64,000 nucleotides of DNA from Antedon mediterranea (taxonomy: Eukaryota; Echinodermata; Crinoidea; Comatulida; Antedonidae): the NCBI RefSeq assembly GCF_964355755.1, contig NC_092674.1, positions 4,035,001 through 4,099,000 of the forward strand, given 5' to 3'. Under the pieces are notes generated by a model, which was given only the letters and a program-made list of their open reading frames with translations, searched no databases and was not told the DNA's origin. The position numbers and the translations under genes are program-made. The first letter of the stretch is position 1, and every line of letters begins with the position of its first letter. Positions 25,501-50,946 of this stretch are shown in pieces.

Positions 25501-25513
25501 AACATTAATTGAA

Positions 25514-28500: not shown

Positions 28501-30368
28501 GCAACCACAGAGGTGATATGCGGAGTGCAGAGGAGAATTTCAATGAGGCACTCAATATTGAAGGGCAGCTGTGGAAGCAGGGCAAGCCTCATTCAGTGGA
28601 TTGGGAAAATTTAAAGAGAAAAATACAAAGTCTCCTTGCAAGAACTGAACAAAAAATGAAATATTCAGAATATAAACTACGCTTCGATGTATGTAGATAT
28701 TTTTCGTCTTGCACAATTTTACAAATCTGTTAAATAAAATGTATATATTCCACGTTAAACTGCTTTTAATTTTATTCATAATTGTTGTTGTTGATATGGA
28801 TTCTTTTATTTTTTAGATAGCGGAGAAAAAATCAACTCAAAAACCTAAAGAAACAGTTATTTCTGACAACAACTCCACGACAGAATCTTCAGGTGAGTGA
28901 TTGGCCTTTTATAAACATAGGTTTGTCAAAGCTGACTGGTTATTCTCGCTGATACTTAATATAGGCTTACATGTCTTATTGTTATGCTAAATGAGCTGCA
29001 CTCATAATTTTATCCGTTACATAACGATACTTTTTATTCGAACATAAACAATTACGGGCAGTATGGTGACATAGTATAGTGTGTAGTAGTGTGTTTTGGA
29101 GTGTAGTTGTCGTTTGGTGGTTATGGTGCTGCTTGGCTACCACTCCACAAGGGTTCAAGTCCCGTCATGTCAGGATTTTTTTAAAGACAAAATTACAACT
29201 CCACTCCAAAAGTCTTGTGTATATGTTTGTCTTGTGAACCTCTGAAGGTCCCTAATGATCAGCAATTGCTGGATTGATCACCCTCATTAATATGGTGTAA
29301 ACAAAAAACCAAACGTCGCCCCGTAAGTTCCATTCGATTCGGTGGATTTTTTATTCACCACTATTGCTGAGTTTAGAGTTTAAAATAAATATTTTGTCTT
29401 TAAAATAATAAAAAAAAACCGTTATATTTCACAGATGAGTCAGTAGATGAGATAAAGAATCCGACATATACACAACATGCTTATAAACAAGAACGTCGTG
29501 ATGTTGTACGTAGAGCATTTTTTCTTCTTACTTTCATTAATTTGACCCTTGACCCAATGTATTACAACTGTTTTTTATTTCACTTCCGAACTGTATGTAA
29601 TACGAAGAAGATTGTATTTTTTTTTAGATAGCGGAGAAACCACTAAAACCGACTAGAACAGTTATTTCTGATGCCGACCCCATAAACGATTCTGTGGGTG
29701 AGTCGTACCTGTAGTATAGCCCTTTTACTGCATATCACAGATGTCTTAATTATATTCTCACATATTTTACATTATTTGCACGATTGCCGAGTAGTGTTTT
29801 GCATTTGAAATAGATAATGAATGCTTAAATATTTTACAGTAGATGAAAGCAAAATGTTGCAAAATATGGAAGACATAAAGAGCAAACATCACAGTAATTC
29901 ATCAGCTTCCGATGAGGGCGACACAAGGTCTGTTGCATCCAGGGACACTGGTATTTCAAGCAATGCTTCTTCTAATAAACTACAAGGTACTTTTCTTTTA
30001 ATTGATTTTCTCATGCGATTCCTCTCCTTCACCAATCCCCTTATCATTCACAAACACTAACTTTTTAAGAAATAGTTAGGAATATTTAGACTATAAGATA
30101 GTAGAGCTTAGGCCTAATGATACTTCATGATGGAAAATTGCTTAAGAAGCAGTAAAGGTTATTTATAATAAGGTTGATGGGGACCTCTTTGTCCAATTGA
30201 ACCTAAAAGCTAGGTAAAAGTTCCTTATCACTAATCAACAAATTATCCAATAATATGTCATTTTTTTTGTCTTTGTATACTTGCTGCGAGATAGTGTCAA
30301 GTAGGCCTACGAGTACAAGAGAGAGCGATGATCAAAGAAAGTCAGATGATACTGGCTATACTCGGTAA
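25514..30368 (+). CDS. NB-ARC (STAND) ATPase with C-terminal TPRs, 935 aa, 8 exons
   Basis: Exons: 25514-25892, 26515-28201, 28385-28688, 28817-28892, 29435-29505, 29628-29697, 29840-29986, 30295-30368. The frame is kept across every GT/AG junction and the total is 936 codons. STAND ATPases of this type are nucleotide-switched signalling hubs, as in APAF1 and plant NLRs. Residues 58-65 are the P-loop GLPGMGKT. Residues 129-137 (AVLLLANAD) sit at Walker B. VVITTTKR (163-170) is the sensor-like RNBS-B strand. GKCPLTLKLTGSLL (219-232) is the GLPL-like helix. Residues about 530-780 form helical TPR repeats, for example VYLANIGSCYYQLEDSKNAI and TLRNLALAYRDENRFKEAI. The last 145 residues are Ser/Asp-rich and low in hydrophobics. 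The first 27 residues are acidic; no death-fold domain is fused. The last exon is the least certain. Confidence 0.8.
28817..29986 (+). repeat. Duplicated exon pair inside the NB-ARC/TPR gene
   Basis: Exon 4 (28817-28892) encodes IAEKKSTQKPKETVISDNN and exon 6 (29628-29697) encodes IAEKPLKPTRTVISDAD. Both start with ATAGCGGAGAAA directly after a T-rich acceptor ending TTTTTAG, and both end in phase 1 before GTGAGT. The following exons 5 and 7 also start alike (DESVDEIK and VDESKMLQ). An exon pair was therefore duplicated in the Ser-rich tail. Confidence 0.65.
29090..29310 (+). mobile_element. tRNA-derived SINE in intron 4 of the NB-ARC/TPR gene
   Basis: Starts with a tRNA-like head (GTTTGGTGGTTATGGTGCTG, then B box GGGTTCAAGTCCC) and continues with a body containing ACAAAATTACAACTCCACTCC and CTTGTGAACCTCTGA-GGTCCCTAATG, ending in an A-rich tail. 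The same element is at 37921-38150 in the first DED unit, so the two copies define the family. Confidence 0.7.
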
Positions 30369-31296: not shown

Positions 31297-33795
31297 CTAT
31301 GAGCCATCGCACGTGGTGACTTTGTTATTAACATAGGTGTCAAACGCAGCCTTCCAGTTGACCATATAAAAGCTTCTCCAATCCTTAAACTCTGCTTTCC
31401 ATTGACTTTCTGCTTCGTCGATGTCACCTAAAAACAAAACAAACAAAAATGTTAATGAGACAACGGTCAGGATCATTGTCCAGTCCATATATATCATATG
31501 ATGTCGAGACATATGATGTCTTTTAACAAGATGGACACTCGCACGGTATGCCTTCAAACGTTCCACAATTTCCTCATTGGAAATCTTGAATGCGCCGATG
31601 GGAAGTGTTGGCATACGTATTAGTTGTCTTTGTATATACACCTTACCTGTCTTTGCTTGTAAGTCCGGCAAGTATTTGTCCCAAAACATACACTGACTGG
31701 CCCTTGGTCCATTCCCCACGACAGTTTTCTGATTGGTAACTAAGGACGCATTTAGTACCAGATACTCAAGATTTTGAGCCGAGTGAAGCGGCCATCTCAG
31801 TTTCTCCATGTCGTCATTTTGCTTGATATTTGGATTTCTAACATAGTATAAATACAATAGATTATTATCAGGATGAAGTTAATGTTGTGGATGCTACTAA
31901 AACCCACCGGATACCACCGGGAAACAACGGACCTACCGGAGCATGAATCTTAATACCAGAGAGCAGCCACCTTCTAATAAAGTAGCGCAAAACGTGTGCC
32001 AGAGCCATGATCTTAACATTGGGGAGGCTGTCATCACGGTGGTACACTTGTAAGCAGATTTGATTGTAAAAGCATAGACATATAAATATAAGGATGATAC
32101 ACGTCGACGGAACTTCTGTACTTCAGATTCTGTGCGTTTCGTTGACATCAATGAAACACTCCAAATACAAAAGTGAAACCAGAATATGCGCACTTACGTC
32201 ATTCGCCGTCATCAATAATTACGTTAGGTTGATGACGTCATATCACCGTAAGGTGTCCGTGAATAGGCTTTAAAGTACTGTAGTACTTACCCGGTTCTTG
32301 CAAAATTAGCGTAGTAAGTCATCATTTGTCGACTCAATTGTTTGTCTTCATCGCTAAACCCGTTCTCTGTGTGAAGAGGAAGTCCAAAGAAGTAGGCAAT
32401 TTCGTCGCCGTGTAAAACTCCCATCCAATCTGGGAATGGGTGGTTCGAGGCACGTTGAGTGAATCTGTAGTAATACACATCTAGCTCGAATTCAGCATAG
32501 GCTTTGGCAAAATGAAAAGTTGGACAGACGAACTTGTTATCGCCGGCAGCCTGGTCAATAGCATCTCGAAAACTAGCGTCGTTGTTTGGTTTTAGCCAAT
32601 CCGTGTATTGGAATTCAATGGCGTCATGAGCAAAGCTGTTCTTATTTGGCCAGCAATATTCAATCGCTTCTCTAAACTGTGACTTGTCTAACAGACTTTC
32701 GGTGTCTTTGCTGTAGCCTGGCACTTCGTAAATTAGAAAAAAATTGGCTTCGTTTGTATTACTCCCGATTATGATCTCGCATGGTTTAAACGCTTTCTTT
32801 TGGAGTGTCGCTTGAGGAGTCTCGACAATAAACAGACCGTCAACTACAGGAACGAAGGCAAAGTTTAAAAATTCAGTCGTTACCCACATACTGTTCAGTA
32901 TTTCCTCTGCATCTTTGGTTTGCAAACATTGTACCATTTCATCGGCGGTAAAAGAACGACCACTGTTACTTTCGGTACACGATAGTTCCTCAGCTAACAA
33001 AGTACCTCTTCTTAGAGCTTCTGGTTTAATGTAATGCGCCCAAGGAGCGTTTGCAGACGCGCTCTGCATAATGGCGCGCTTAAACAGATTACGACTAACA
33101 GGCGACAACAGATGGAAACTTACACTCGCCGAACCTGCACTTTCTGAAAACAGCGTCACCTCATTAGGATTGCCACCAAATAAGGCAATGTTTTCTTGAA
33201 CCCATTGTAGCGCGAGCGCTTGATCGCGCAAACCAGCATTCCCAGGTGCCTCCTCTCCCATTGCTAAGAAACCAAGAGCTCCAAGTCGATAGTTCATTGA
33301 TACCACGATCAGGTTTTCTTCGGCAGCAAGAGTTTTTCCATCGTATACATCAAGCGAAGAAACGCCACTGAAATAGCTTCCACCATATATCCACACCATT
33401 ACTGCCGAATTACGCGGCCGAGGATAAGGTGCCCATACGTTTAAGTTCAAACAATCTTCACTCATGGGCACGTTTGGGTTCCACATCTCCGTGCCTGGAA
33501 ATCCGGGGAAAGTGTCATCTGGTAGCTGCATACAGCCATTACCGTATTCGGTTGCGTTAAACGTTGTCTTCCAATGTTCCTGTGGTACCGGTGGTTTAAA
33601 GCGTCGGTTACCTACCGGCGGTTCTGCATAAGGTATTCCCAGGAACGCGTCAACATCTTTGTTAAACACATTCATGCGTTTACCTCGAACCTTCCCTTGT
33701 ACAACTTTTACAATGATGTCTTCGCTAGCAGATACCACACAGAACATACTGAATGGTATAACCAGCAAAAAACAACAGCGTATAAACTGCATCAT
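31297..33795 (-). CDS. Acetylcholinesterase-like carboxylesterase with T-type tail, 608 aa, 3 exons
   Basis: Cholinesterases hydrolyse acetylcholine outside the cell. Exons: 33795-32291, 31837-31647, 31427-31297; phases fit and the acceptors and donors are clean. Residues 1-24 are a signal peptide (MMQFIRCCFLL... SAS). The catalytic triad is present: Ser219 (in SESAG), Glu349 (SNTNEAN), His462 (VLHGDEI). Trp105 in EMWNPN is the choline-site tryptophan, and ANFART is the exon-1 end seen in the family. The acyl-pocket pair reads Leu310/Phe312 rather than two phenylalanines, as in several invertebrate enzymes. The last exon (DIDEAESQWKAEF ... NWKAAF ... TTC) is a clear tryptophan amphiphilic tetramerisation peptide with a terminal cysteine. 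The oddity is SESAG in place of the near-universal GESAG. The ATG at 33795 follows an acceptor (TTATTTCAG), so a 5' untranslated exon lies upstream. Confidence 0.9.
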
Positions 33796-33859
33796 AGAAA
33801 TAATCCTGAAATAAAAAAAAAACAAAATGACAAAAATGTTATACTGTATAGCGATTTTT

Positions 33860-35240
33860 CTTTGTCCCGTAAAATAGTAAGGTCGTTAAGGAACAGCGCA
33901 TAGCTAACCTATTGTCATTGACAACCGTATAAAATAATAAGTTGGTATTTATATAGAATTATGTCTCTGCAAACACGGTATACTTTCAACTGACGTTTCT
34001 AAAATTCTGAGATTGGCATACTGTGCACTGGATGTCCATTCTTTTCGTAAATACTGTTATCTAGACTATAGTATAAGAAATGGTAGTAAAGGCAAAATCC
34101 CGGGCAAAATATTGGGAACTTACGTAATACCAGGAGTGGAGAAACCCACGCAACTTATACCACCTACCGACCTACCTGGTAATTATAGATAGGCCTTATA
34201 AAGACACTTTCCGTTGCTGTTGTAGCTGACACCAAACTGCAAGTGCCAGCTCTTACGTTTCCAATAGCATACCATTACAATCGATGATAAGGACGCGTTC
34301 CCAGCAACATTACCTCTAGAAGAACTTACAATAAGACTTGCTTCATTACATTCTGAATCGACTTATCGAAATTGTTCGTAGCCTGGACTGTGTACGGCCT
34401 ATGTAGCAGAGACCATACAAGAAGAATCCGACCCCACGATGCAGCGATGCATGGACTTGACGTGTGAATCAATAGTGTCTAATGACATGCTTCAATGACC
34501 TCGTATAGAATAATGCTTAATGTTCATTGTTTGTCGGGACGATATCGATGATCAATTTAATTTAGATTACGTGTGGCTAGATATCGATACGGAACAGAAA
34601 TTGTCAATAGCGCCATCAAGGATACTCAATCTTGTAGTGTATTATCTAGAATCGATTAAATGCTAAAATGATCACCTACTATTTTACGAATATGTACAGT
34701 TGTCAGAAGTTTAGAATAACAGGGGTGGGGGGGGGGAGGGTTAGCTATTTTTCTGTTCCAGTTGGTTGAAGTTCGGTTCCCACGCATACGCAACGCAAAC
34801 GACATGAAACAACGTGGTTAGTTGACCAATCACAAGCGACAGAATCGTACCGTGAATACCTGCCATGAAGGATGATGTCATCTCCGCCAGGGCCGCAATA
34901 AACAACTAAAAATACCTGCCCTAAAGAAAGGGAGAATGGCAAATAATAAATGTCCTATTTCATCCGTCAGCGCAGGTAAACGGCTATGTACAGTGTGGAA
35001 TACAATACATGCAAATATTTGGTACACTTTAATTTCATGTGAAAATTAAATTAGCCTATAAAAAAATAGCTGTGGGATGGTCTGGGAAAGTGATACTGTA
35101 TAATAATAATACATTATACGTATAATATATGTGTGTGTAATAAATACTACATGGCCGGACCGCAAGTAAAATGCGATACATATGATGACGTAGTAGATAT
35201 CTAGGCATGGGTAGAAATCCCGGATTGGAGTAGAGGTTTA
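33860..35240. other. Upstream region of the cholinesterase gene
   Basis: It should contain the untranslated first exon and promoter of the minus-strand cholinesterase gene. A minus-strand CCAAT-type word (GTGATTGGTCAACTAACC, read from about 34830) and a poly-G tract at 34722-34740 are the only notable signals. No second gene was recognised. Confidence 0.35.
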
Positions 35241-36298: not shown

Positions 36299-38814
36299 AT
36301 GGCAAGTCGAGAAGACAAACTCAGTGATTTACTACTCGACTTTTCTAAACTTTATTGTGGAGGTGGTAAATACAAATGGTTAAAGTGTCTATTATTCAAT
36401 GCACTATCAGTTTCCACGTTGACAGATAGCACATCATCATTGGAATTGTTGCGAAATCTGAGAGAAGGTAGTAATATCTCATTTAATAATGTGGAGATTT
36501 TGTTAGAGATAGCTAACTTGACAGGGCTGGATGCTGCCATAAAGCTGGTTGAAAAATATAAGCAAAACACCACTGGATATAACGCCATTAGTGGTAAAAG
36601 GGTAATAATACTGTATCGCAGAAAACTGTTTGAGTGTCTTAGAGATGTTGGAGGATCCGAGTTACCTAGAATAGCTGCATTTTATACTGAAGATTCGAGT
36701 GATTATAAAGATATCTGGGATTTTGTGTTCTTTTTGGAGGTAGAGAAACGATTGGATAGTACACCAGAGAAAAGTAAAAGATTTGCTAAATTACTCAACC
36801 AGACAGCTGCATATAAATTAACAAAAGGTAAAATTGTACTACAATAATATGTTTTAAAAAAATTTTTAAAAAGCACTCATGTACATATTGTAGGCCTAAT
36901 TTTGTGGACTTTACAAATTAAATTCAAATTCATCATTAGGCCTAAGTTCAAAATGACAAATATGCACCTTTTTTTTCAAAACTCGGACATTAATATATAT
37001 AATTGCTATACAATCTTGATGGTATTACATTTACCATATCACTGCATTACAAGTATAATGTTTCATATGTGTAAAACGTTTATAAACAAAATCTTACATT
37101 GTGTTATAACCCACAGAATACGCAGATACTTTACCAGTGACTGCTGAGCCACAGAACATTTCATCGCCTTCAATACGAGGTATATACCAGACTCTTTTAT
37201 CTGTTAAGGCACTGAACAACATTCTCAAAAGGGATTTCACATTTAGTACTTTAGTGCCCTGTTTGACGACAAATACATGCTAGCGCTATGTTTGCCGTCA
37301 TAGATAGGCCTACCATTGTGTATCTTCATGAAACATCACATTTATCCTATAAAGAATATTATTAATATTTTTTAATTTTCAGAGGTTCTTCCCGGCACTG
37401 CAGCAGTCAAAAAGGAGCAATCAATATCAGCAGTAGTAAAGAAACCTACCGGTAAACTATTTTTCTGAATATTTTATAGATTGTTGTATGGTTGATTAAG
37501 TAGGCCTATGTAGGCCTAATCTTAAAATATAAAATCGTATGCGTTGTATTTAATCAACAGCATCAATTGATTTAAGCGTATAAAAATATTTAAAATGTTT
37601 TATTTACAGTTCCTTCAAGTACTGGCAACAGAAATTCAAAACCATGGACATCATCTGGAATCGGTATGTTTGGTTATTGCATTTGAATGCATTGAGAAAC
37701 CTTTATAAGATTTGCGACGACTTACAGTAGGACCTGAATTAGTTACGTCATGTGCATACATTGTGAGCATGCGTAGGACATTTGAATGTGTGGGTAGGTT
37801 TTGTAGGTCGTCGCAAATCGGAAGCTCCCATTGTCTATGGTTGGATTTGACGTAGATTTCTTCGAATAACAAACGGTAACATTACTTGGACATGAGTGCT
37901 GAACATTCTATAATATTGAAATGAAAGTGGAGTTGTGGCTTGGTGGTTATGATAACTTGGCTACCACTCCAAGGGTCCTGGGTTTAAGTCCCGTCACATG
38001 TAAGGATTTTTTCTGTGGACAAAATTACAACTCCACTCCCAAAGACTTTGTTTATGTAGAGCATCTTTTGTATGATTGTCTTGTGAACCTCTGAGGGTCC
38101 CTAATGATCAGCAATTGTTGGATGGATCACCCTCATTAAATATGGTAAAAAAAAATGTAATAATGTTACAGCATTAATTAAAAGTCATGTCACATTTTCA
38201 GTGTATAAGTAGACATATATCATTACTACAATCGGTTGTGCTATCATAAATATGCTGCTATATCTTTCTTCATTAAAGCACTACCCGAGAGCGACTATCT
38301 ACGACTACTTGTGAACGTGTCATCGTGGTGGACAAAACACAATAAAATAAATTTACTGAAATTTATCCTTTTAAAGTTCAAAAAGGACGTTGCTCTAACA
38401 GACATAGAGAAAACTGATGATCCGTTCGATTTGTTTGAGTTGCTTACAGCTCCTGGAATAATTGGCCCATCAAATGTTGATGTTTTGATGGAAGCCGTTG
38501 TAATCGGAAGGATGAAAGGTGTGGACGAGGAGAAGATCACAAAATTGATACCGACCTTTCCTGGATTCACTAACATAACAGTCCCAGCATCCTGGGATAA
38601 GCGACAAAAGTTGATCAGATTTGGGCTCAGGATAGGTAAAGCTGAACAAACCCGCATTGGACAGTTGTGTGGTGTGATGGTTAACAAGTTACCAGATGTT
38701 TGGGCGTTGATGTTTAAACTAGAGAATAAAGAATTATTCGATAGAAAAGTCACAGAATTAATTCAAAGATTAAATGACACTGGTATGGATAAGCTTGCAG
38801 CATTATTGGAATAG
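36299..38814 (+). CDS. Four-DED protein, copy 1 (416 aa, 5 exons), no caspase domain
   Basis: Exons: 36299-36827, 37117-37179, 37383-37451, 37610-37663, 38279-38814, all with phase-1 junctions. Death effector domains are six-helix modules that assemble caspase-8-type cell-death and NF-kB complexes. Exon 1 holds two: residues about 6-90 (WLKCLLFNALS, SSLELLRNL, NNVEILLEIANLTGLDAAI) and about 105-170 (YRRKLFECLRDVGGSEL, DIWDFVFFLEVEKR). The second pair of patterns closely parallels the tandem DEDs of caspase-8/FLIP. Exons 2-4 form a 62-residue Ser/Thr/Pro linker. Exon 5 holds two more: about 244-325 (INLLKFILLKF, DPFDLFELL, NVDVLMEAVVIG) and about 342-415 (RQKLIRFGLRIG, DVWALMFKLENKELF). No protease, membrane or signal segment is seen. 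TTCTTCAG just before the ATG suggests a 5' untranslated exon. The first DED call is the firmest and the fourth the weakest. Confidence 0.75.
37921..38150 (+). mobile_element. tRNA-derived SINE present only in DED unit 1
   Basis: Same family as the element at 29090-29310: head GTGGCTTGGTGGTTATGATAA, B box GGGTTTAAGTCCC, body ACAAAATTACAACTCCACTCC, tail ending in A9. Unit 2 reads ATTGAAATGTAATGTC uninterrupted at about 44706-44721, so it is the empty site. Insertion came after the unit duplication. It sits in intron 4, about 130 bp upstream of exon 5. Confidence 0.75.
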
Positions 38815-39755
38815 AAACTATGGAGAGACAAATAAATAATTTCATGCAATATATCATTATTTTACCAAAATTGTACTTAAATTTTGCTTTTATTATGCTA
38901 CACTCATCACGCAAAATAGCAAAATTCATGAACGTAAACGTGGAGTTTTATTGAAAACCGGGGCCATTCATTTTTAAAGATTAGTAGTTAGATTTAGTCA
39001 AAAGCGTTTTACCAACAAAGTTAATCTTGTAAAAAATAAAGCATTTAAGAAGTGCGTTTTTAAGAATATTGTTGTGTAAATAACATACATACTGAATTAA
39101 CATGTTTTATTATAATGATCAGTTCAAAGAAGGGAAAAGGGAAATAATGCGTTTGAAAGCTACATGAGTTCTACCGTTATGTGTTTGTATGTGTGTACGA
39201 ATATTTTCTTGTTGAAGAAATGTAAGTTCCCACACAAGACTAGAAAAAAGAAAGACGTGTGTTGCATGTCATCAACAGCGGCAAACACGTACATGACATG
39301 ATAGGCAAGGAGTTGTTTTACAAAATAAGAAACAATATGACTTTCGTAGAATTACGCATGCAGATAAACTTTTTATACCTCGATAATGAGACAGAGCATG
39401 CTCAATAGTAACTCAAGATTCGGAAATAATTTATGACTAAAAAAAGTAAGCCTACTATTCCGTATGTTTGTTTCCATTATAAGATGTTTATGTGTACCAA
39501 AATTGTCGCCTGTTATTCATTGTTTTTCTTTTTCACTTCACTTTTTATGCTTTCATGCTAGCTAAGAATAACTTTATTCCATGACGTATGTGAAGAAACT
39601 ATTTCAATTTCAATCTATTACTTGTATATACTTATAATAAAAACATGAAAACAATATACATTTTTCGTGTCCTTTTTTCTAAGCATTTTCACTTTCTTTG
39701 TCAGAATGAATTTCGGTAGCCTACATATGATGATATTATAAAAAGTAGGCCTAAA
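38815..39755 (+). other. 3' flank of DED copy 1, shared with unit 2
   Basis: An AATAAA signal lies about 18 bp after the stop (38832) and another near 39035. From about 38930 onward the sequence is nearly identical to the flank of copy 2 (45490-46310). No gene was seen; a short minus-strand frame near 39618-39845 runs into the hAT-like element terminus and is not convincing. Confidence 0.5.
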
Positions 39756-41508
39756 CACGGGCGCGGATTTAGGCAGCACCCATCCCCCCCCCCCACCACT
39801 AAATTTCAACAGACTTGCCTTTTTTAGATAATGACTTATCTGCAACCCGACGGATCGTTTTTATCATTTATATAATATACCCCGACGCTACACACACAGT
39901 GATGGCGCCTTCTTCGGGGAGTATTGAGTAATTTGACCATATTTGTCGGGGAGAAAAATAAGATTATTTATTTTCTAGTAAAAAAAACATATTAAGTGTA
40001 CTACTCTATATTTTAAGTAGGCCTAACTGCGGCATTCCATTTTTGACGTACGTTCGAAGGGGGTGTCACGAAACCTAAGACCACGAAAGCTAAGAACCCC
40101 TAAGACCTAAGATCACGAAAGCTAAGACCCAAGACCTAAGATTACAAATATTTATCTTTCGCACCTGCCTTGTATTTTAACTCCCAACATTTATTCTGAA
40201 TACCACACCTTAGAATTGGCACTTTCATGAAAAAGAATCACATAAAAAGTAACAAATACATTTTTAAATTGATGATTTTACAGACGTTTTTCTCGCACAC
40301 AAAATGACTAGCCTACAGCACACTAGAACTAGGCCTACCCCATGTTATGATAAGTTTTTTTGTTTCGTTTTCTTTCTGTTTTTATACTTGTACTATTATT
40401 GTTGCTCTTTTGGCGCTCCATAGAAACAAAAAATATTGAGCATGGGGAGCTCGAGGAGTTACATTACAGTATAAAAAGAAACACGTCTGTAAAATCATCA
40501 ATTTAAAGGATTTATTTATTTGTTATTATGTGTTTCTCCTTCTGAAAGTACTTATAAGTCCTAATTTTAAAGTGTGGTATTCAGGATAAAGTTAGTCAAC
40601 AAATTTGGAGTCAAAATACAAGAAAGGCAGGTGCGTAAGAAAAACATCCTCTGAACCAACACATTGGAGTAAATATATACCAACAAACAACCCGTCAAGT
40701 TTGTTTGTTGTAAAGAAAAAATATACATTTACTCAACGGGCGAAAATAATGTGAGTTTATCTATGTTTTGCGGTAGTATTAAATTATATTTATGGTAATA
40801 AATGAAACCTACTGTGTTTAAAATTATGTATGGATAAACAAGTATTGTTTTTAAGCTGTATAGTATATCTTAGAATTTGTAATCTTAGGTCTTGGGTCTT
40901 AGCTTTCGTGATCTTAGGTCTTAGGGGGTCTTAGCTTTCGTGGTCTTAGGTTTCGTGACACCCCGTTCGAAGGCTATACACTTTATGCATGCTGACTGTT
41001 AGCGAAGTAAACAGTATGTGGTACGCATTTGTCTGGCGGTGTCTCTTTGTACGAATCATTCATGACCCGGCCGGTTCACTGACTGCGGTATACTCGTGGA
41101 CATATCTGGGCTGTATCATATTACATCCAGGGACCAAAATGTGTATTTTCCAGATTCCAGGTGAAAATCGGAAATTCATTTGCAAATACACATCAACGTA
41201 CGTTCATACAGGGAAAGGTACGAGTTATGTTCTCACGGTTGAGTTTACGAATTGTTTCAATTTACGAATAACCATGTGTACGGCGTATATGTTCGCTGTC
41301 GAGGGGTTTGGGTGGGGGTTCGAGTGGGGGAAAGGAAGCGGTTGGCCCGAACCATAAAACACGGTCTGGTCACGTTTCTTTTTCGCGCATAAAGATATAA
41401 AGTAAAATAAAATTATCCTTAAATGTCTAATATCGTCGTAACTGTTAAAATTTGCAGGGGCTTCGCCCTCGTACCAAAAGCTAATTTATAATGCTGGATC
41501 CGCCCCTG
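39756..41508. mobile_element. hAT-like non-autonomous element in unit 1 (with nested foldback element)
   Basis: Left end CACGGGCGCGGATTTAGGC followed by poly-C, and right end GCTGGATCCGCCCCTG, form imperfect inverted repeats of the CAGxGGCGGATCC type common in hAT elements. The middle contains TGTCTGGCGGTGTCTCTTTG and CATCCAGGGACCAAAATGTG, shared with the 3443-5197 element. The same insertion is at 46310-47204 in unit 2, so it predates the unit duplication. A 905-bp element is nested at 40060. Confidence 0.6.
40060..40964. mobile_element. 905-bp foldback transposon with 8-bp target duplication
   Basis: Nearly perfect terminal inverted repeats of about 95 bp begin GGGGTGTCACGAAACCTAAG. Within them the words CTAAGACC and ACGAAAGCTAAG are repeated. 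A second, inner inverted repeat pairs about 40190-40300 with 40490-40600 (for example TTGATGATTTTACAGACG). GTTCGAAG directly flanks both ends (40052-40059 and 40965-40972). Unit 2 has the unoccupied site (GTACGTTCGAGGGCTATAC near 46612-46630). There is no coding capacity. The 8-bp duplication fits hAT, P, Merlin or some Mutator-like elements; the class is not settled. Confidence 0.85.
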
Positions 41509-41867
41509 TGTACAGTGTTTACGAGCTCTGAAATCCCGACTAGACATTGCTGATTTGATGATGCTTGAATATGTCTAGGCCTAAGGTTTATGTTTAACCC
41601 TTCGTAAATGTGAATAATGTTGCGTTTAAACCACCTCATTTTAATACACCACATTGTGAGGTTATTTGTATCTCATCTCGCATCGCATAATATAATCGAT
41701 CGAATATTATATAATTATTCTTTACTTATTATTATATTTTGTTGTTATTGTGGTAGCACTGTAATGCTTTATTTATTTATTATATCTTCTCAGTTTCGAT
41801 TCGCAACGTATAAAAATCGATGTGCCTTGGCGTGTCATACGTTAGTATAATTGAACTTTCCGGAAAT

Positions 41868-42080
41868 CGTTTGGCGTTTCATAGTAAGCTTGATCGTCTC
41901 GATTGTCTCTTGGCTGTTTTTCACAATAGAATGAAAGCGGCACAGTATATAGGTTTTGGCATGGTTTTGGTGCTGGGACAGGTGGTTGCATGTTACGTAC
42001 CTCGACGTTTTGCTAATAGATTGAAATACAGGGACATATCAAGATCAAGTGAAATTTATTCGATTATTATAGTTTTCTAA
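41868..42080. other. Conserved block at the start of each DED unit
   Basis: This block (unit 2) matches 35260-35450 in unit 1 and, more weakly, about 47495-47540 in unit 3. On the minus strand all copies contain ATGAAACG and a related peptide (IKHTMKRQTAKF in unit 1, IKLTMKRQT in unit 2, IKEMKRHKSKF in unit 3). On the plus strand only unit 2 has an open 49-codon frame with one hydrophobic segment (MKAAQYIGFGMVLVLGQVV). It may be a promoter or untranslated exon of the DED genes, a bidirectional start region, or a small gene. Confidence 0.35.
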
Positions 42081-42752
42081 GTTTGTAAGTTTTTAGATTA
42101 GAAACCTAATTACGGATATACTACAAATAGGCTAAAGTAGGAAAATCAAGTTAGCTTACATAAAATTGTCCAAGTTCAAGCTTACTTTACTTACTACACT
42201 GTAATATCCACACCCTAAATAGCCTATAGGCCTTTTATATGCCAAAATACATGCAAATTCCGTGCGTTTTTACTATTATAGGCCTAATACAAGCTCAATG
42301 ATTTTATGTGAACTGTTTATTTATGGCTATATATGGGGCTAGGCCAATGTATTCAAGTGATTAATTCCATTGATCGTTCCGAATGTGCCTACCTAAAATA
42401 AGGTCGTTGGACTTTCCATACGTGAATCATCTGGTGGGCAGACGATAAAAATAATATGATGATAATCACAGAGTCGATAAACGTGATGTGATGTTGTTTG
42501 TCTTCGTATTTTAAAAGCTGGAACAAATCCTTCTATTATTTTCACCATAGACAAACAAAACACTCCAGTAACGTACAATTTGACAGCATGATTGCGAGTG
42601 ATATAAATTGTGTTTTTTTAAACATAATATGCAACTTGTTTTACTCCAGCACATTATCGGTCGTGTAATTCGAACATTTCGTTTTTTTAAATAGGCTTCG
42701 AGTATTTTGCCTCAAATTTCCCTGCGAGACATTTTCCATAGGCCTATCATAT

Positions 42753-42927
42753 ACCCCTTTCACACCAAAACACCGGGGTGTCCCCGCAGTTCGCTCTCCG
42801 GAGAATGTTTAGCTGTTGAACCCCGCAGTTTTAAACTCCGGAGTTGCTTGATTTTACCTTTCACACCAAAACACCGGGGCGTCAACTCCGGAGTGTCTCC
42901 GGAGTTTTGCTTTTGGTGTGAAAGGGG
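42753..42927. mobile_element. TA-flanked MITE with CCCCTTTCACACC ends, only in unit 2
   Basis: Left end CCCCTTTCACACCAAAA and right end TTTTGGTGTGAAAGGGG are perfect 17-bp inverted repeats, flanked by TA on both sides. The interior repeats the CTCCGGAG palindrome, CACCGGGG and the left-end word itself. At the matching place in unit 1 (about 36090-36120) the sequence runs CCCTATCTAATTATTCAC without the element, so it inserted after the duplication. Confidence 0.8.
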
Positions 42928-43072
42928 TACTATTAATTCACATACAGTGACAATAATTGTTAATTTTGATTGTTACGTTAACGTAACAAAATTGATGTTA
43001 AACAAACTGTTTAATATCCCGAGATATTGTAGGTCTATTTATGTATGCACTTGTTATTCTTCAGTCTCTAAA

Positions 43073-45354
43073 ATGGCGAGTCAAGAAGATAGATTCGAGG
43101 ATTTACTAGACGAATTTAGTAGACATTTTTCTGGAGGCAAATGCAAATGGTTAAGGTGTCTTTTATACAATACACTAAGTGTTTCCACGTTGACAAAAAG
43201 CACAACAGCATTACAATTACTTTCAAAATTGCACAGTCAAGTTAAAGGTCATATCTCCTCTAATAATGTGGAAATTTTGTTAGAGATAGCTGAATTGACA
43301 GGGCTGGATGCTGCCATAAGGCTGGTTGAAAAATATAAGCGAAATACCGCTGGATATAACGCCACCAGAGGTCAAAGGTTAACACTGTATCGTCAAAAAC
43401 TGTTTGAGTCACTTAGAGAAGTTGGAGGACCAGAGTTACCTAGAATTGCTGCATTTTATAGTGAAGATTCCAGTGATCATATTGATATTTGGGATTTTGT
43501 GTTCTTTCTGGAGGTAGGAAAGCGATTGGATAGTACACCAGAGAAAACTAAAAGATTTGCTAAATTACTCAACCCGACAGCTGCACACATATTAACAGAA
43601 GGTAAAATTGTTCTTCAATATTATTTAAAAATGTTTTTAAAAAAATACTAACATTCATGGCTTTTATATAATGTCTGTATAACCTACATATAATTTTGTG
43701 GGCTTTACAAATTAGTTTAAAATGACGAATATGCACTTTTTTTTTCAAAACTCGGACATTAATATAATTGCTATACAATCTTGATGATATTACGTTTATC
43801 ATATCATTGCATTACAAGTATAATGTTGCATATGTGTAAAACGTTTATAAACAAAATCTTACATTGTGTTATATCCCACAGAATATGCAAATACTTTACC
43901 AGAGACTGGTGAGCCACAGAACATTCCATCATCTTCTATACAAGGTATATACCAGATACTCTTTTATCTGTTAAGGCACTGAACAACATTCTCAAAAGGG
44001 ATTTCATATTTAGTACTTTAGTGCCCTGTTTGACGACAAAGACATGCTAGCGCTATGTTCGTCGTCATAGATAGGCCTACCATTGTGTATCTTCATGAAA
44101 CATCACATTTATCCTATAAAGAATATTATTAATATTTTTTAATTTTCAGAGGTTCTTCCCGGCACTGCAGCAGTCAAAAAGGAGCAATCAACATCAGCAG
44201 TAGTAAGGAAACCTACAGGTAAACTATTTTTCTGAATATTTTATAGATTGTTATATGGTTGATTATGTAGGCCTAATCTTAAAATATAAAATCGTATGCG
44301 TTGTATTTAATCAACAGCATCAATTGATTTAAGCGTATAAAAATATTTAAAATGTTTTATTTACAGTTCCTTCAAGTACTGGCAACAGAAATTCAAAACC
44401 ATGGACATCATCTGGTATCGGTATGTTTGGTTATTGTATTTTGAATGCATTGAGAAACCTTTATAAGATTTGCGACGACTTACAGTAGGACCTGAATTAG
44501 TTACGTCATGTAAATTCATTGTGAGCATGCGTAGGACATTTGAATGTGCTTCCTCTATTCTTCGACACCATTTGGGGGGGGGGGGGGAAGGTTTTCTAGG
44601 TCGTCGCAAATCGAAAGCTCCCATTGTCTCTGGTGAGGATTTGACGTAGATTTCTTCGAATAAAAAACGGTAACATTACTTTGACAGTGCTGAACATTCA
44701 ATACTATTGAAATGTAATGTCAAATCACATTTGCAATGTGTACTTAGGCATAGACACAATTTCTGATCATAGATAAAATATTTTGTTCCTATAACATGTT
44801 TTTTCTTCCTTACAGCACTATCCAAGAGTGACTATCGAAAACTACTTGTGGAAGTAGCATCGTGGTGGGAAGAACACGAAAAAATACATTTACTAAAATT
44901 TATCATTTTCAAGTTTAAGTGCGTTGCTCTAACAGACATAGAGAACACTGATGATGCATTCGAACTCCTTGAGTTGCTTACAGCTCCTGGAATAATTAGT
45001 CCATCAAATGTTGATGTTTTGATGGAAGCCGTTGTAATCGGAGAAATGGGAGGTGTGGACGAGGAAAGGATAACAAAATTGATACCGACCTTTCCTGGAT
45101 TCAGTAACATAACAGTCCCTGCACGCCGCTGGGATAAACGACAAAAGTTGATCAAATTTGGGCGTGGGATAAGTAAAGATGAACAATCCGAAATTGCAAA
45201 ATTATATGGACTGAAGACTAAGAAGTTAAACGATGTCTGGGATTTCATGTTAAAACTAGAAAAGAAAGAATTATTCGATGGAGAAATTATAGAATTCGTT
45301 CAAACACTTAAGGACAATAAAATGAAAAAACATGCAACTACATTATTGGGATAG
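43073..45354 (+). CDS. Four-DED protein, copy 2 (417 aa, 5 exons)
   Basis: Exons: 43073-43601, 43882-43944, 44150-44218, 44367-44420, 44816-45354. The first four have exactly the lengths of copy 1; the last is 3 bp longer. Domain order is the same: DED1 (WLRCLLYNTLS, NNVEILLEIAELTGLDAAI), DED2 (YRQKLFESLREVGGPEL, DIWDFVFFLEVGKR), linker (VLPGTAAVKKEQST), DED3 (IHLLKFIIFKF, LLELLTAPGIIS), DED4 (RQKLIKFGRGISKDEQ, DVWDFMLKLEKKELF). It differs from copy 1 mostly at charged and polar surface-type positions, while predicted core residues are kept. Both copies look functional: no stops, conserved splice sites, TTATTCTTCAG just before the ATG region. Cytoplasmic location is inferred from the absence of signal and membrane segments. 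Confidence 0.75.
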
Positions 45355-46309
45355 AAACTGAAGAACAAAAATGAAGGAATAGTGTTGTAAAGAAACCCTT
45401 ATCACACTTCTGCAATATTTAAGGATTTTACTAAAATTTTTAATATTAATGATTTTATTATGCTACACTCATCACAAAAATAGCAAAATTCATGAACGTA
45501 AACGTGGAGTTTTATTGAAAACCGGGGGCCATTCATTTTTAAAGATTAGTTAGATAAGATTTATTCAAAAGCGTTTTACCAACAAAGTTAACTTTGTCAA
45601 AAATAAAGCATTTAAGAAGTGCGTTTTTAAGAATGTTGTTGTGTAAATAACATACATACTGAATTAACATGTTTATTATAATGATCAGTTCAAAGAAGGG
45701 AAAAGGGAAATAATGCGTTTGAAAGCTACATGAGTTCTACCGTTATGTGTTTGTATGTGTGTACGAATATTTTCTTGTTGAAGAAATGAAAGTTCCCACA
45801 CAAGACTAGAAAAAAGAAAGACGTGTGTTGCATGTCATCAACACACGTCCAACAGCGACAAACACATGACGTAAAAAGATAAGAAACAATATGACTTTCG
45901 TAGAATTACACATGCAGATAAACTTTGTATACCTCCATAATGAGACAAATCATGCTCAATACGAACTCAAGATTCGAAAATAATTTATGACTAAAAAAAG
46001 TAGGCCTACTATTCCGTATGTTTGTTTCCATTATAAGATGTTTATGTGTACCAAAATTGTCGCCTGTTATTCATTGTTTTTCTTTTTCACTTCACTTTTT
46101 ATGCTTTCATGCTAGCTAAGAATAACTTTATTCCATGACGTATGTGAAGAAACTATTTCAATTTCAATCTATTACTTGTATATACTTATAATAAAAACAT
46201 GAAAACAATATACATTTTTTGTGTCCTTTTTTCTAAGCATTTTTACTTTCTTTATCAGAATGAATTGCGGTAGCCTACATATGATGATATTATAAAAAGT
46301 AGGCCTAAA
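45355..46309 (+). other. 3' flank of DED copy 2, near-identical to unit 1
   Basis: From about 45490 on it matches 38930-39755 with roughly 3% difference by eye (for example AACGTGGAGTTTTATTGAAA and AAGAAGGGAAAAGGGAAATA are unchanged). No gene was recognised. Confidence 0.6.
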
Positions 46310-47204
46310 CACGGGCGCGGATTTAGGCAGCACCCATCTCCCCCCCCCCCCCCAACCACTAAATTTCAACAGACTTGCCTTTTTTAGATAATGACTTATC
46401 TGCAACCCGACGGATCGTTTTTATCATTTATATAATATTTACCCCGACCCTACACACACAGTGATGGCGCCTTCCTCGGGGAGTATTGAGTAATTTGACC
46501 ATATTTGTCGGGGAGAAAAATAAGATCATTTATTTTCTAGTAAAAAAAAAACAAATTAAGTGTACTACTCTTTATTTTAAGTAGGCCTAACTGCGGCATT
46601 CCATTTTTGACGTACGTTCGAGGGCTATACACTTTATGCATGCTGACTGTCAGCGAAGTAAACAGTATGTGGTACGCATTTGTCTGGCGGTGGTGTCTCT
46701 TTGTACGAATCATTCATGACCCGGCCGGTTCACTGCGGTATACTCGTCGACATATCTGGGCTGTATCATATTACATCCAGGGACCAAAATGTGTATTTTC
46801 CAGATTCCAGGCGAAAATCGGAAATCCATTTGCAACTACACATCAACGTACGTTCATACAGGGAAAGGTACGAGTTATGTTCTCACGGTTGAGTTTACGA
46901 ATTGTTTCAATTTACGAATAACCATTTGTGTACGGCGTATATGTTCGCTGTCGAGGGGTTTGGGTGGGGGTTCGAGTGGGGGAAAGGAAGCGGTTGGCAC
47001 GAACCATAAAACACGGTCTGGTCACGTTTCTTTTTCGGGCATAAAGATATAAAAATAAATAAATAAAAGTAAAATAAAATTATCCTTAAATGTCTAATAT
47101 CGTCGTAACTGTCAAAATTTGTAGGGGCTTCGCCCTCGTACCAATCTCGACTTCCCTCCCCCCCCCCCCCCCACACCTAATTTATAATGCTGGATCCGCC
47201 CCTG
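46310..47204. mobile_element. hAT-like element in unit 2 (no nested insertion)
   Basis: The duplicate of 39756-41508 with the same ends (ACGGGCGCGGATTTAGGC plus poly-C; GCTGGATCCGCCCCTG). It lacks the 905-bp foldback insertion, so it shows the ancestral state of the site. A longer poly-C tract lies near the right end. Confidence 0.6.
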
Positions 47205-47493
47205 TGTACAGTGTTTACGAGCTCTGAAATCCCGAGTAGACCTCTTGCTGATGTGATGATGCTTGAATATGTTTGCCTAGGTTTATGTTTAACCCTCCGT
47301 AGTGTGAATAATGTTGCGTTTAAACCACCTCATTTTAATACACCACATTGTGGGGTTATTTTGTATCTCAGCTCATAGATCGCCAACGGAGGTTGCATAA
47401 CAAATATGTGTATACGACCTCTCACTTTTTTATAGTAGGTCTACATTCCAATATTATTTTCAGTTTCGATTCTATATAATCTATTTGCGTTCC

Positions 47494-49176
47494 ATTGAAC
47501 TTTGACTTGTGACGTTTCATCTCCTTTATGACTACTACTGTAGTATTGTTTATAATCCACTGCTACCAATAATAAGCTGCATGTCTGGTTGGATGATTTT
47601 GTTCGGTGTGCCAATGCTAGTACCTATCTATAGGCCTACCTCCAGTGCGTTTTCTGTGAATGAAATTGATTTTTTGTGAAAGTACATTTCAATTATTATT
47701 AGTAAGTCGTTTATTTTCATTTTCTTATATATGAGCACAATACATTAAGATATACTGTTGTAGTGTATGTTTTGGGCAGGCTAAGAAAGTTAGTGGAATT
47801 AGTGGCCTATTCTATGTTGTATACATGATAGCCTAATGATGGGAGGGGCAGTCCGGGCCGGGGCAGTCGGATCACAATGCATTATTATTAATTTCCAAAA
47901 AATATTATCATGAATTATTTTAATATGTTGGCATAGTGATTATAATTCTGATTTATTTAATTTGTACAACATTTTTCAAAATTAATTTTAGCATTTCAGT
48001 TTTCCCGAAATCCTATTTTACCTTAATTTTCTGCCGGAGGCATCGATGGCGTTCCATACTGACTACTGTACTTTAATTGTGCGAGGAGCTTTCGAATTTG
48101 TTGCGGACTTCTTTAATTGTGCGAGGAGCTTTCGAATTCGTTGCGGACTTCTTTAATTGTGCGAGGAGCTTTCGAATTTGTTGCGGACTTCTTTAATTGT
48201 GCTTAGCTCTTCTTTAATTGCGCGTTTCTTTTTTATTTGTGCATTTCGTTTTATATTTTCATGCTTTCTTTTGTTTATATGCGATTTCTTCTTTAATTGT
48301 GCGATTTCTTCTTTAATTGTGTGATTTCTTCTTTAATTGTGTAATTCCTTCTTTAATTGTGTGATTCTGTGTTATAGTGTGCGTGACAGTTGTGGGCCAC
48401 CGTAAAAATCAGTATGGCATATACAACAAAATATAACTGTTTTCACTGCTGAGGATAATAAATAATATATTGAATTTTAACGCCTAGATACTTCCAGTGC
48501 GAATACAAAATAATAATAATGTACAGTATTAGTATGTATTTTCAAATGCTGCAAGACATGAGACCCGAAATAGGCTAGGCCTAGGTGGCAGCGCACGTGC
48601 ATACCTAGCTAGAGCTAGGGTGTGTGGGAAGTGTAGCTAGTGTGCTGGGTTGTGTACATCTCCACGATGCCTCACGGTGGTACGATGAAGGAGGCGGGGA
48701 AGGAGGATATGGAGGCCTGATAAAAAGTGATCGTAGCGGGGATCGTAGGTAGGCCTACTACTCTAAATCCTAGCTCATCTAAGCCAAATGGGTCAAATAA
48801 AAAACTATATTTAATCTGCTTCTTTGTTATCAGGAACAATATCGGAATTATGGAAAACATTTTGTAAAATCATCATCGCGCAATCAAGAAGCAGAGAGAA
48901 AACATTTCTTTTGCATAATATGCATGAGACTCTGTGACGACACGCTTTAACGTGACGTCATTTTACTTTAGCTGCATGCGAAGAAGTAGTCACCGTTGTG
49001 AACTCCTCATCTTCTATAATATTGTATAAAGTGATCTTTTAATACGCCTATAATAATATTCTATTTTTTTATTAATGATATCCTCATTTTGTCAATTAAT
49101 AGGAATAATTTAATATGGCAGATAATAGTTTTCATAAAATAGACTCTTTTGTTCTCCCAGAATTGACATACAATCA
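47494..49176 (+). other. 5' part of degenerate unit 3
   Basis: Weakly similar to the upstream parts of units 1 and 2 at its start, then unrelated or diverged. It contains the composite tandem repeat at 48.07 kb. A minus-strand frame near 48672-48860 has no recognisable feature. TTGTTCTCCCAG at about 49149-49160 matches the acceptor position upstream of the ATG in the intact copies. Confidence 0.4.
48071..48370. repeat. Composite tandem repeat (40-bp and 20-bp units)
   Basis: Three near-perfect 40-bp units start CTTTAATTGTGCGAGGAGCT and end TTGCGGACTT (48071-48190). After a transition zone come about four 20-bp units CTTTAATTGTGCGATTTCTT (to about 48370). Both unit types share the head CTTTAATTGTG, so one probably arose from the other. 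Confidence 0.85.
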
Positions 49177-50946
49177 ATGGCAGCGAATAACTCGGGGAAT
49201 AACTATACACTCAACATCTTACTTAAAGAACTTAATAAAGACTTTTCTAGTAGTACCAAATACAATTGGTTGAGGTGTATTTTACACGATAGCCTAACAG
49301 TTGATGAGTTATCACCGGAAAAACAAATCAGCATCGCAGTTATTTCTTCCACTCGGTGATACAAAAGGTGTTATCTCCGAGACAGATGTGGAGATTTTGC
49401 TGGAAATTGCCAAGTTAATAGAGCACTAATCGGCAATAACACGTATAGAAGAGTATAAGGAAAACACCAAGAGATATAATGGCAAAAGCGTAGAAAGAAT
49501 AACACCCTTTCGTAAAGCGCTTTTTAAAGCTTTAAAAAATGTCGGACGTAAAGAATTAGCCGACATAACCGCCTTCTACTCTAAAGAATCCGGAGACTTT
49601 GCGACAATATGGGATTTTGTGTTCTACCTCGAAACACATGAAGACATATTATTGGACAGCACACGTGAGAAAACTGAAAGATTTGCTAAACTTCTTAACG
49701 GAATAGCAAAGAGTAAATTGCAAGGTAATAGTTGAGGCCTCCTCCTCTATCAAAGCATATGGTACTATTAAAGAAGAATTAACCCACATTTATCTATTAG
49801 CCTACCCTGATGTTTTATGGGGGAACTGATTAGGTATTTTAGATATATATTCATTGGCAAATACATTTGGAATTAGGCCTACTGTTATGTGGTTCATTGA
49901 ATTCAATATTCGATATTTGACTATTAGGGGTCTACAGGTGGAATCTTTGTGATACAATGATAATAATTGTTTTATTTGCTTTTACCTATAGAACTTCAGC
50001 ACACTGGTCTGACTTCGGGTCAGTGTGATAAAATATATTTATAGTAATAGCGTTTATTTCAATTCAGTCATTTTCACTTCATTTTTTAAATATTTGCAGT
50101 TTATATAGATACACTACAACTGGTGAAGGCTACAGACGGGCGACCTACACCAGAAGGAGAGCCGTCTTCAACCATGGAGGAATCCGCGCGTGCTTCAACA
50201 AGGACATAAATCTGGTAACAGGATATCTATTTTTGTCCACACTGTCTCAGCACAAACCTCTGTATATAATTCACTGTACTATAAAATATTTCCCACGAAC
50301 GAATAATAAGCGTGATGTCCATATATGGAACATAGTTGTTTTCTACGATTCTCAGATGAATTCAACTCTTTTTCGAAAATTACATTTTCATGTTAGTTAG
50401 GCTTACATGTTTTCATGATTAAGTAGTCTTATCTTCCAAATCATTTTGTATTTGTTTTTTCCAATGTTCAATGTCATAGAGATGGCATTATGGTTGGAAA
50501 ATTGGGAAAATTAATTAACTAAAAGTAATAGGCCTAAGGCATTTAATTAAAAACTGATCTTTCAGAAAAATAGAAAAATAAACATACAGGGTACTTTGAA
50601 TTTCACTCTTCCCTGATTTGAATCAAGCTCTCTGATGTTCTCATTTTAGGTGATTGGAGAGATGGAAGGTTTGGCCGAGTAAATGATGAATGGCTGCCTA
50701 CCTTCCCTGAGTTCCGTAAATACCCCGGTATGCATTCCAAACTGAGAAGTGGCGAAAGTTAGTCGAGTTCCGTCACGACTTCGGTAAGAAAAAGAAAAAC
50801 CCTATTTTGATAGACTGTGGACTGAAGAGCCAGAAGATGTTACTACTTCAACTAGAGAAGAAAATACGTCCATCGGAAAGTTGGAAAAAACCATAACTAC
50901 CTACTATAAAGACAATGAAATGAACAACTTGATGCTGCAATTCATT
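49177..50946 (+). pseudogene. Four-DED gene copy 3, decayed
   Basis: Exon 1 (49177-49724) starts MAANNSGNNYTLN and has a DED1 (YNWLRCILHDSLTV). Then a frameshift between about 49325 and 49345 gives a stop at 49357, and a further in-frame stop TAA at 49427-49429 sits where the intact copies have the LDAAI helix. DED2 downstream is still readable (FRKALFKALKNVGRKEL, TIWDFVFYLETHED). A linker exon at about 50100-50214 (YIDTLQLVKATDGRP) ends in a stop at TAA just before donor GTAACA. Remnants of DED3/4 at 50650-50946 (WLPTFPEFRKYPG, KWRKLVEFRHDFGKK, KMLLLQLEKK) are in shifting frames. It cannot make the full protein; a short DED1 or a DED2-only product is conceivable. Confidence 0.8.

What the first reader, a model, noticed from the sequence alone, without database searches (positions are those of the whole stretch)
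36299..46300. Exons of the two DED genes diverged far more than their introns and flanks
By eye, the first 105 bases of exon 5 differ at about 20 positions between copies, mostly changing residues. The neighbouring intron 2 differs at about 5 of 200 and the 3' flank by about 3%. This inverts the normal pattern. It points to strong diversifying selection on the DED surfaces after a recent duplication, or to replacement of exons by conversion from a distant paralogue. Such patterns are typical of host-pathogen or self/non-self recognition genes.
Basis: seen in the sequence. Interest (0 to 1): 0.85.

Follow-up and report, generated by a model that had tools for sequence, protein, structure and literature searches.

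The report
Conversion mosaic in twin DED genes
Two neighbouring cell-death-signalling-type genes in an invertebrate look as if their protein-coding parts evolved faster than their introns, but the silent sites show that the exons are simply old while the introns and downstream DNA were recently copied from one gene to the other, much as in the primate red/green colour-vision genes.

Summary
The two units are intact five-exon genes, each encoding two caspase-8-like tandem-DED modules (exons 1 and 5). Exons 1 and 5 differ by 17-18%, introns 2-3 by 0.7-2%, and the 3' flank beyond about 75 bp by 2.6%. Diversifying selection after a recent duplication is not the cause. Silent sites are just as diverged (dS 0.29 and 0.28; dN/dS 0.64 and 0.74), 53/226 against 5/351 in introns 2-3 (p about 3e-18). 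The excess also runs into noncoding DNA beside both exons. The best reading is an old tandem duplication (dS about 0.28) with two tracts (36959-37908 and 38888-41679) recently homogenised by gene conversion between copies. Exon 1 supports this: it pairs A with one chromosome-C1 copy and B with another (41 sites, none pairing A with B), so A and B split before the introns became alike. Replacement of exons from a distant paralogue is not needed, though exon 1 carries a short interchromosomal mosaic. Selection may still matter: both DED exons were spared, a second pair of loci shows the same pattern, and exon 5 shows a modest site-level signal. The closest precedent is the primate L/M opsins.

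The parts
36299..36827 (+). gene A exon 1, tandem-DED module 1 (divergent block)
   Evidence: ORF and splice sites; DED match in Pfam (below the curated cut-off); 16.8% from B
36828..36958 (+). first 131 bp of gene A intron 1: noncoding but as diverged as or more diverged than the exon (24-34% by alignment)
36959..37908 (+). homogenised tract 1 in A (intron 1 3' part, exons 2-4, introns 2-3, 5' part of intron 4); partner in B is 43728-44699
   Evidence: two-state HMM, 4.0% overall, about 1% in introns 2-3
37117..37179 (+). gene A exon 2
37383..37451 (+). gene A exon 3
37610..37663 (+). gene A exon 4
38279..38814 (+). gene A exon 5, tandem-DED module 2 (divergent block)
   Evidence: caspase-8/cFLIP tandem-DED fold
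38815..38887 (+). first 73 bp after gene A stop: noncoding, 27/72 differences from B, belongs to the divergent block
38888..41679 (+). homogenised tract 2, 3' flank of A (partner B 45453-47374), mostly 2-3% apart (the last 200 bp somewhat more), interrupted by an insertion in A at about 40061-40963
43073..43601 (+). gene B exon 1, tandem-DED module 1
43882..43944 (+). gene B exon 2
44150..44218 (+). gene B exon 3
44367..44420 (+). gene B exon 4
44816..45354 (+). gene B exon 5, tandem-DED module 2
49138..49735 (+). exon-1-like relic (gene C), frameshift plus an in-frame TAA, no exon 5 found

Best explanation
A and B are an old tandem duplicate (silent divergence about 0.28) of a gene with two caspase-8-like tandem-DED modules. 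More recently, gene conversion between the two copies overwrote two noncoding-rich tracts (36959-37908 and 38888-41679), resetting them to 1-4% divergence. The two large DED exons and a short margin around each were not overwritten and keep the old divergence. Shown: the tract structure, the equal silent age of the two DED exons, and a gene tree in exon 1 that contradicts the intron similarity. Inferred: that the young tracts arose by conversion rather than another copying event, and that conversions into the DED exons were removed because keeping two different DED surfaces is useful (about 45% likely; otherwise the sparing is chance, or exon divergence blocked strand exchange).
For: dS is .286 (exon 1) and .279 (exon 5), against .007-.02 in introns 2-3; silent exon sites 53/226 vs intron 5/351, Fisher p 2.6e-18. 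The HMM finds sharp switches inside intron 1 and 73 bp after the stop; longest identical run 216 bp vs permutation maximum 138. Noncoding DNA inside the divergent blocks is at least as diverged as the exons, so the usual exon/intron order returns once tracts are separated. Exon 1: 41 sites support A+L073 | B+L074, none A+B, while the A-B match runs on through intron 1 and the A-L073 match stops at the exon end. Exon 5: A and B are sisters, C4 copies equidistant. The intron 2-4 tract was found only in A and B. Second case: L075/L077 3' flank about 0.3-1% apart, exon 6.7% with dS .093.
Against: No outgroup copy of introns 2-4 was found in the genome, so the old state of those introns is not seen directly. 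Tract 1 is not uniform (about 5% at its edges, about 1% in the middle), so several events or partial tracts are needed. The 5' flank aligns only in short blocks (about 0.15-0.17 in the alignable ones), so the old age there is rough. Random placement of an island covering exon 5 has probability .04-.12, so the sparing of exons is not strongly significant.
Confidence: 0.8

Rival explanations
1. Recent (about 2%) tandem duplication followed by replacement of exons 1 and 5 in one copy by conversion from dispersed paralogues.
For: Exon 1 has closer relatives on C1 than its tandem partner (A-L073 8.5%, B-L074 about 11%); matches to A stop at the exon's splice sites; a short mosaic segment inside exon 1 at alignment positions 278-397 (permutation p .0045) shows interchromosomal exchange.
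Against: The C1 relatives are .10 and .16 away at silent sites, older than the .02 intron divergence, so neither is a recent donor. Exon 5 has no closer relative than its partner. The 5' flank and intron-1 start would also need replacing.
Confidence: 0.13
2. Strong diversifying selection on the DED surfaces after a recent duplication, with introns at the neutral level.
For: dN/dS of .64-.74 is high for a signalling domain; M2a over M1a in exon 5 with A, B and the three C4 copies (2dl 14.7; 1 of 147 null simulations reached it, and the largest simulated value, 9515, is a numerical failure).
Against: Synonymous sites are equally diverged; adjacent noncoding DNA too. The exon 5 signal weakens with four sequences (p .06.02.15) and is absent in exon 1.
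Confidence: 0.04
3. The introns and 3' flank are functionally constrained (regulatory or RNA) and the exons evolve at the neutral rate.
For: Low divergence over several kilobases.
Against: Abrupt switches inside intron 1 and just after the stop; large insertions within the conserved stretch in A only (about 40061-40963, and in intron 4, with a similar copy at 29100).
Confidence: 0.03

Closest known systems
Primate L/M (red/green) opsin tandem genes (PMC3213168; PMC3924837, citing Teshima and Innan 2008)
   Same: Tandem duplicates with exons more diverged than introns, silent divergence high in exons, tracts of conversion mainly in introns, and different gene trees for exons and introns.
   Different: There the function of the differing residues and multi-species data show selection against exon conversion; here both are missing. 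Divergence here is larger (dS .28 vs about .06) and the genes are DED proteins.
GOT1p1/GOT1p2 of Tigriopus californicus (PMC3728101)
   Same: Islands of divergence among regions kept alike by conversion.
   Different: The islands there lie within one intronless coding sequence.
Caspase-8 / cFLIP tandem DED
   Same: Each large exon encodes a 176-178 aa module; for exon 5 the best fold matches are caspase-8/cFLIP tandem DEDs (Z up to 9.4 over 154 residues), and the only profile matches of the four modules are caspase-8 (E .05-.24).
   Different: No caspase domain found; two tandem-DED modules joined by a short linker from three small exons; only 9-17% identity to caspase-8/cFLIP in the fold alignments.
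Expanded death-fold families of amphioxus (PMC2575513)
   Same: DED-bearing hybrid genes and domain shuffling in an invertebrate innate immune network.
   Different: Species not identified here; the GFP test for amphioxus gave no hit but is weak.

Membership tests
Tandem duplicates shaped by intron-biased interlocus gene conversion (opsin type) | Exon silent divergence well above intron divergence | tested here: met
   53/226 vs 5/351, p 2.6e-18
Tandem duplicates shaped by intron-biased interlocus gene conversion (opsin type) | Exon tree conflicts with intron similarity | tested here: met
   41:0:5 sites in exon 1, A with L073 and B with L074; introns 2-4 shared only by A and B
Tandem duplicates shaped by intron-biased interlocus gene conversion (opsin type) | Selection removes conversions in the functional exons | tested here: inconclusive
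   Island placement p .04-.12; site model modest and not robust; no polymorphism data
Genes under strong diversifying selection | dN/dS above 1 over the domain exons | tested here: not met
   .64 (95% .41-1.08) exon 1.74 (.46-1.20) exon 5
Tandem-DED (caspase-8/FLIP-like) proteins | Two DED folds in tandem, exon 5 module | tested here: met
   Profile match colinear with caspase-8 tandem DED, model with mean pLDDT 61, fold alignment over residues 4-171
Tandem-DED (caspase-8/FLIP-like) proteins | Two DED folds in tandem, exon 1 module | tested here: inconclusive
   Model is poor (pLDDT 52) and its fold search uninformative; Pfam DED over residues 9-89 of B and 24-25% identity to the exon 5 module along its whole length
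Tandem-DED (caspase-8/FLIP-like) proteins | Assembly into filaments with FADD/caspase-8 | not testable with these tools
   needs protein

The most novel reading that the evidence does not exclude
DED modules in this animal form a family of different binding surfaces, and selection repeatedly protects the DED exons from being homogenised while flanking DNA is freely exchanged, so that divergence peaks mark a recognition code in death-fold genes.
Probability: 0.3. Interest if true: 0.65.

Novelty: new member of a known kind. Interest (0 to 1): 0.42.

Why it matters
It corrects a tempting reading: high exon and low intron divergence between duplicates is not by itself a sign of fast protein evolution, and the synonymous sites decide. 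It also gives a clean case, outside opsins, where divergence peaks sit on interaction-domain exons amid conversion. If selection is the cause, such peaks would point to DED surfaces that must differ between copies, and that can be tested by binding assays.

Tried and rejected
Whole-unit 5' alignment: unreliable outside short blocks. GENECONV-style triplet test on A/B introns: not possible, no third copy of introns 2-4 found. Donor search for exon 5: nothing closer than 77% beyond its partner. An apparent divergent patch at 39290-39324 is an alignment effect of an indel. The first codon alignment of L074 was out of frame and was redone. The A/B row used wrong start coordinates and is ignored. 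GFP search to test for amphioxus: no hit but no positive control. No retrieved paper was seen to describe conversion in DED genes.

Full report
WHAT IS THERE. The window lies in a 354-Mb, 18-contig genome with at least 90 DED matches among its best-scored candidates. Units A and B are intact five-exon genes of 416 and 417 aa with matching splice sites. Exons 1 and 5 each encode a DED-containing module of about 177 aa. A profile of the four modules finds caspase-8 tandem DEDs as its only PDB matches, weakly (E .05-.24). The model of the exon 5 module (mean pLDDT 61) aligns best with caspase-8/cFLIP tandem DEDs (Z 9.4 over 154 residues); the exon 1 model is too poor to use. A third, broken exon-1-like copy lies at 49138-49735.

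20 of 102 bases differ at the start of exon 5, 4 of 203 in intron 2, and 2.6% in the 3' flank. Exons 1 and 5 differ by 17-18%, introns 2 and 3 by 2.0% and 0.7%.

IT IS NOT FASTER PROTEIN EVOLUTION. Synonymous sites are even more diverged than nonsynonymous ones: dS .286 in exon 1 and .279 in exon 5, with dN .182 and .207. Pooled silent exon sites differ at 53 of 226 against 5 of 351 intron sites (p 2.6e-18). Selection on the protein does not raise silent divergence more than tenfold.

THE CONTRAST IS BETWEEN TRACTS. A two-state HMM divides the aligned unit into divergent 36299-36958, homogeneous 36959-37908, divergent 37909-38887 (including an insertion in intron 4 of A) and homogeneous from 38888 on, apart from one indel artefact. 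The blocks ignore exon borders: intron 1's first 131 bp differ at 24-34% depending on alignment, and the first 73 bp after the stop at 27 of 72. Within divergent blocks the noncoding DNA is at least as diverged as the exon, which is the normal order. The longest run of identity, 216 bp, exceeds all 5000 permutations.

WHICH PART IS ANOMALOUS? Exon 1, exon 5 and the intron-1 start all give a silent age near .28. The simplest reading is an old duplication in which introns and 3' flank were later homogenised. Exon 1 gives an independent check. Two loci on contig C1 carry exon-1 copies. Of 46 informative sites, 41 join A with L073 and B with L074, 5 join A with L074, and none join A with B. The silent distances (A-L073 .098, B-L074 .164, A-B .277) place the A/B split before both, and long before the .01-.02 of the introns. 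For exon 5, A and B are sisters relative to three copies on C4 (dS .295 vs .46-.55), and at A/B differences the C4 majority matches A 45 times and B 46 times. No young donor for either exon was found.

EXCHANGE BETWEEN CHROMOSOMES. The A-L073 match ends at the exon 1 splice sites, and four of the five conflicting sites cluster at positions 278-397 (permutation p .0045). So exon 1 has probably also exchanged sequence with C1, in unknown direction. Because only the exon and part of the 5' flank are alike between the loci, such exchange is naturally confined there.

IS SELECTION SPARING THE DED EXONS? In favour: both large exons escaped; a second pair, L075/L077 on C4, shows a 3' flank about 0.3-1% apart with an exon 6.7% apart (dS .093), while a third copy is about equally far in the exon; and M2a beats M1a for exon 5 (2dl 14.7; reached in 1 of 147 null simulations, with a numerical failure as the largest value). 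Against: the signal drops to p .02-.15 with four sequences, is absent in exon 1, recombination can mimic it, the code is self-written with fixed branch lengths, and chance placement of the exon 5 island has probability .04-.12. I hold this at about 45%.

COMPARED WITH WHAT IS KNOWN. Primate L/M opsins show the same signature: exon divergence above introns, conversions mainly in introns, and conflicting trees (PMC3213168, PMC3924837). The phenomenon is known; I saw no report of it in tandem-DED genes in the papers searched, which leave out most subscription journals.

Noticed in passing
G000 C3, C4, C9: L010-L017: Four dispersed loci, over 3 kb long and about 97-99.8% identical, carry two adjacent DED ORFs beside a long opposite-strand ORF; possibly a mobile or recently amplified unit carrying DEDs.
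   Followed up: partly
G000 C3: L040-L047: Eight copies of an exon-5-like DED module followed by roughly 107-bp-spaced repeated alignments, with similarity often starting about 40 bp before the exon.
   Followed up: partly
L074 (C1:2505400-2515300; exon-1 copy at C1:2510098-2510622, minus strand): Exon-1 copy has GAG where A and B have the start codon, yet keeps an open frame of about 206 aa.
   Followed up: partly
window 25490-28733 +: ORFs with an AAA/NB-ARC-like P-loop domain and TPR repeats (STAND-type gene) near the DED array.
   Followed up: partly
window 40061-40963: Insertion in the A 3' flank with inverted terminal stretches; pieces similar to its ends occur in L073.
   Followed up: no
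window 39926-40058: A stretch of about 130 bp inside the 3' flank is a dispersed repeat, with about 40 scored matches across the genome.
   Followed up: no
window 42755-42931: Short CCGGAGT-rich insertion upstream of gene B, not seen in A.
   Followed up: no
window 31297-33885 -: Acetylcholinesterase-type gene: carboxylesterase domain plus the tetramerisation domain.
   Followed up: no
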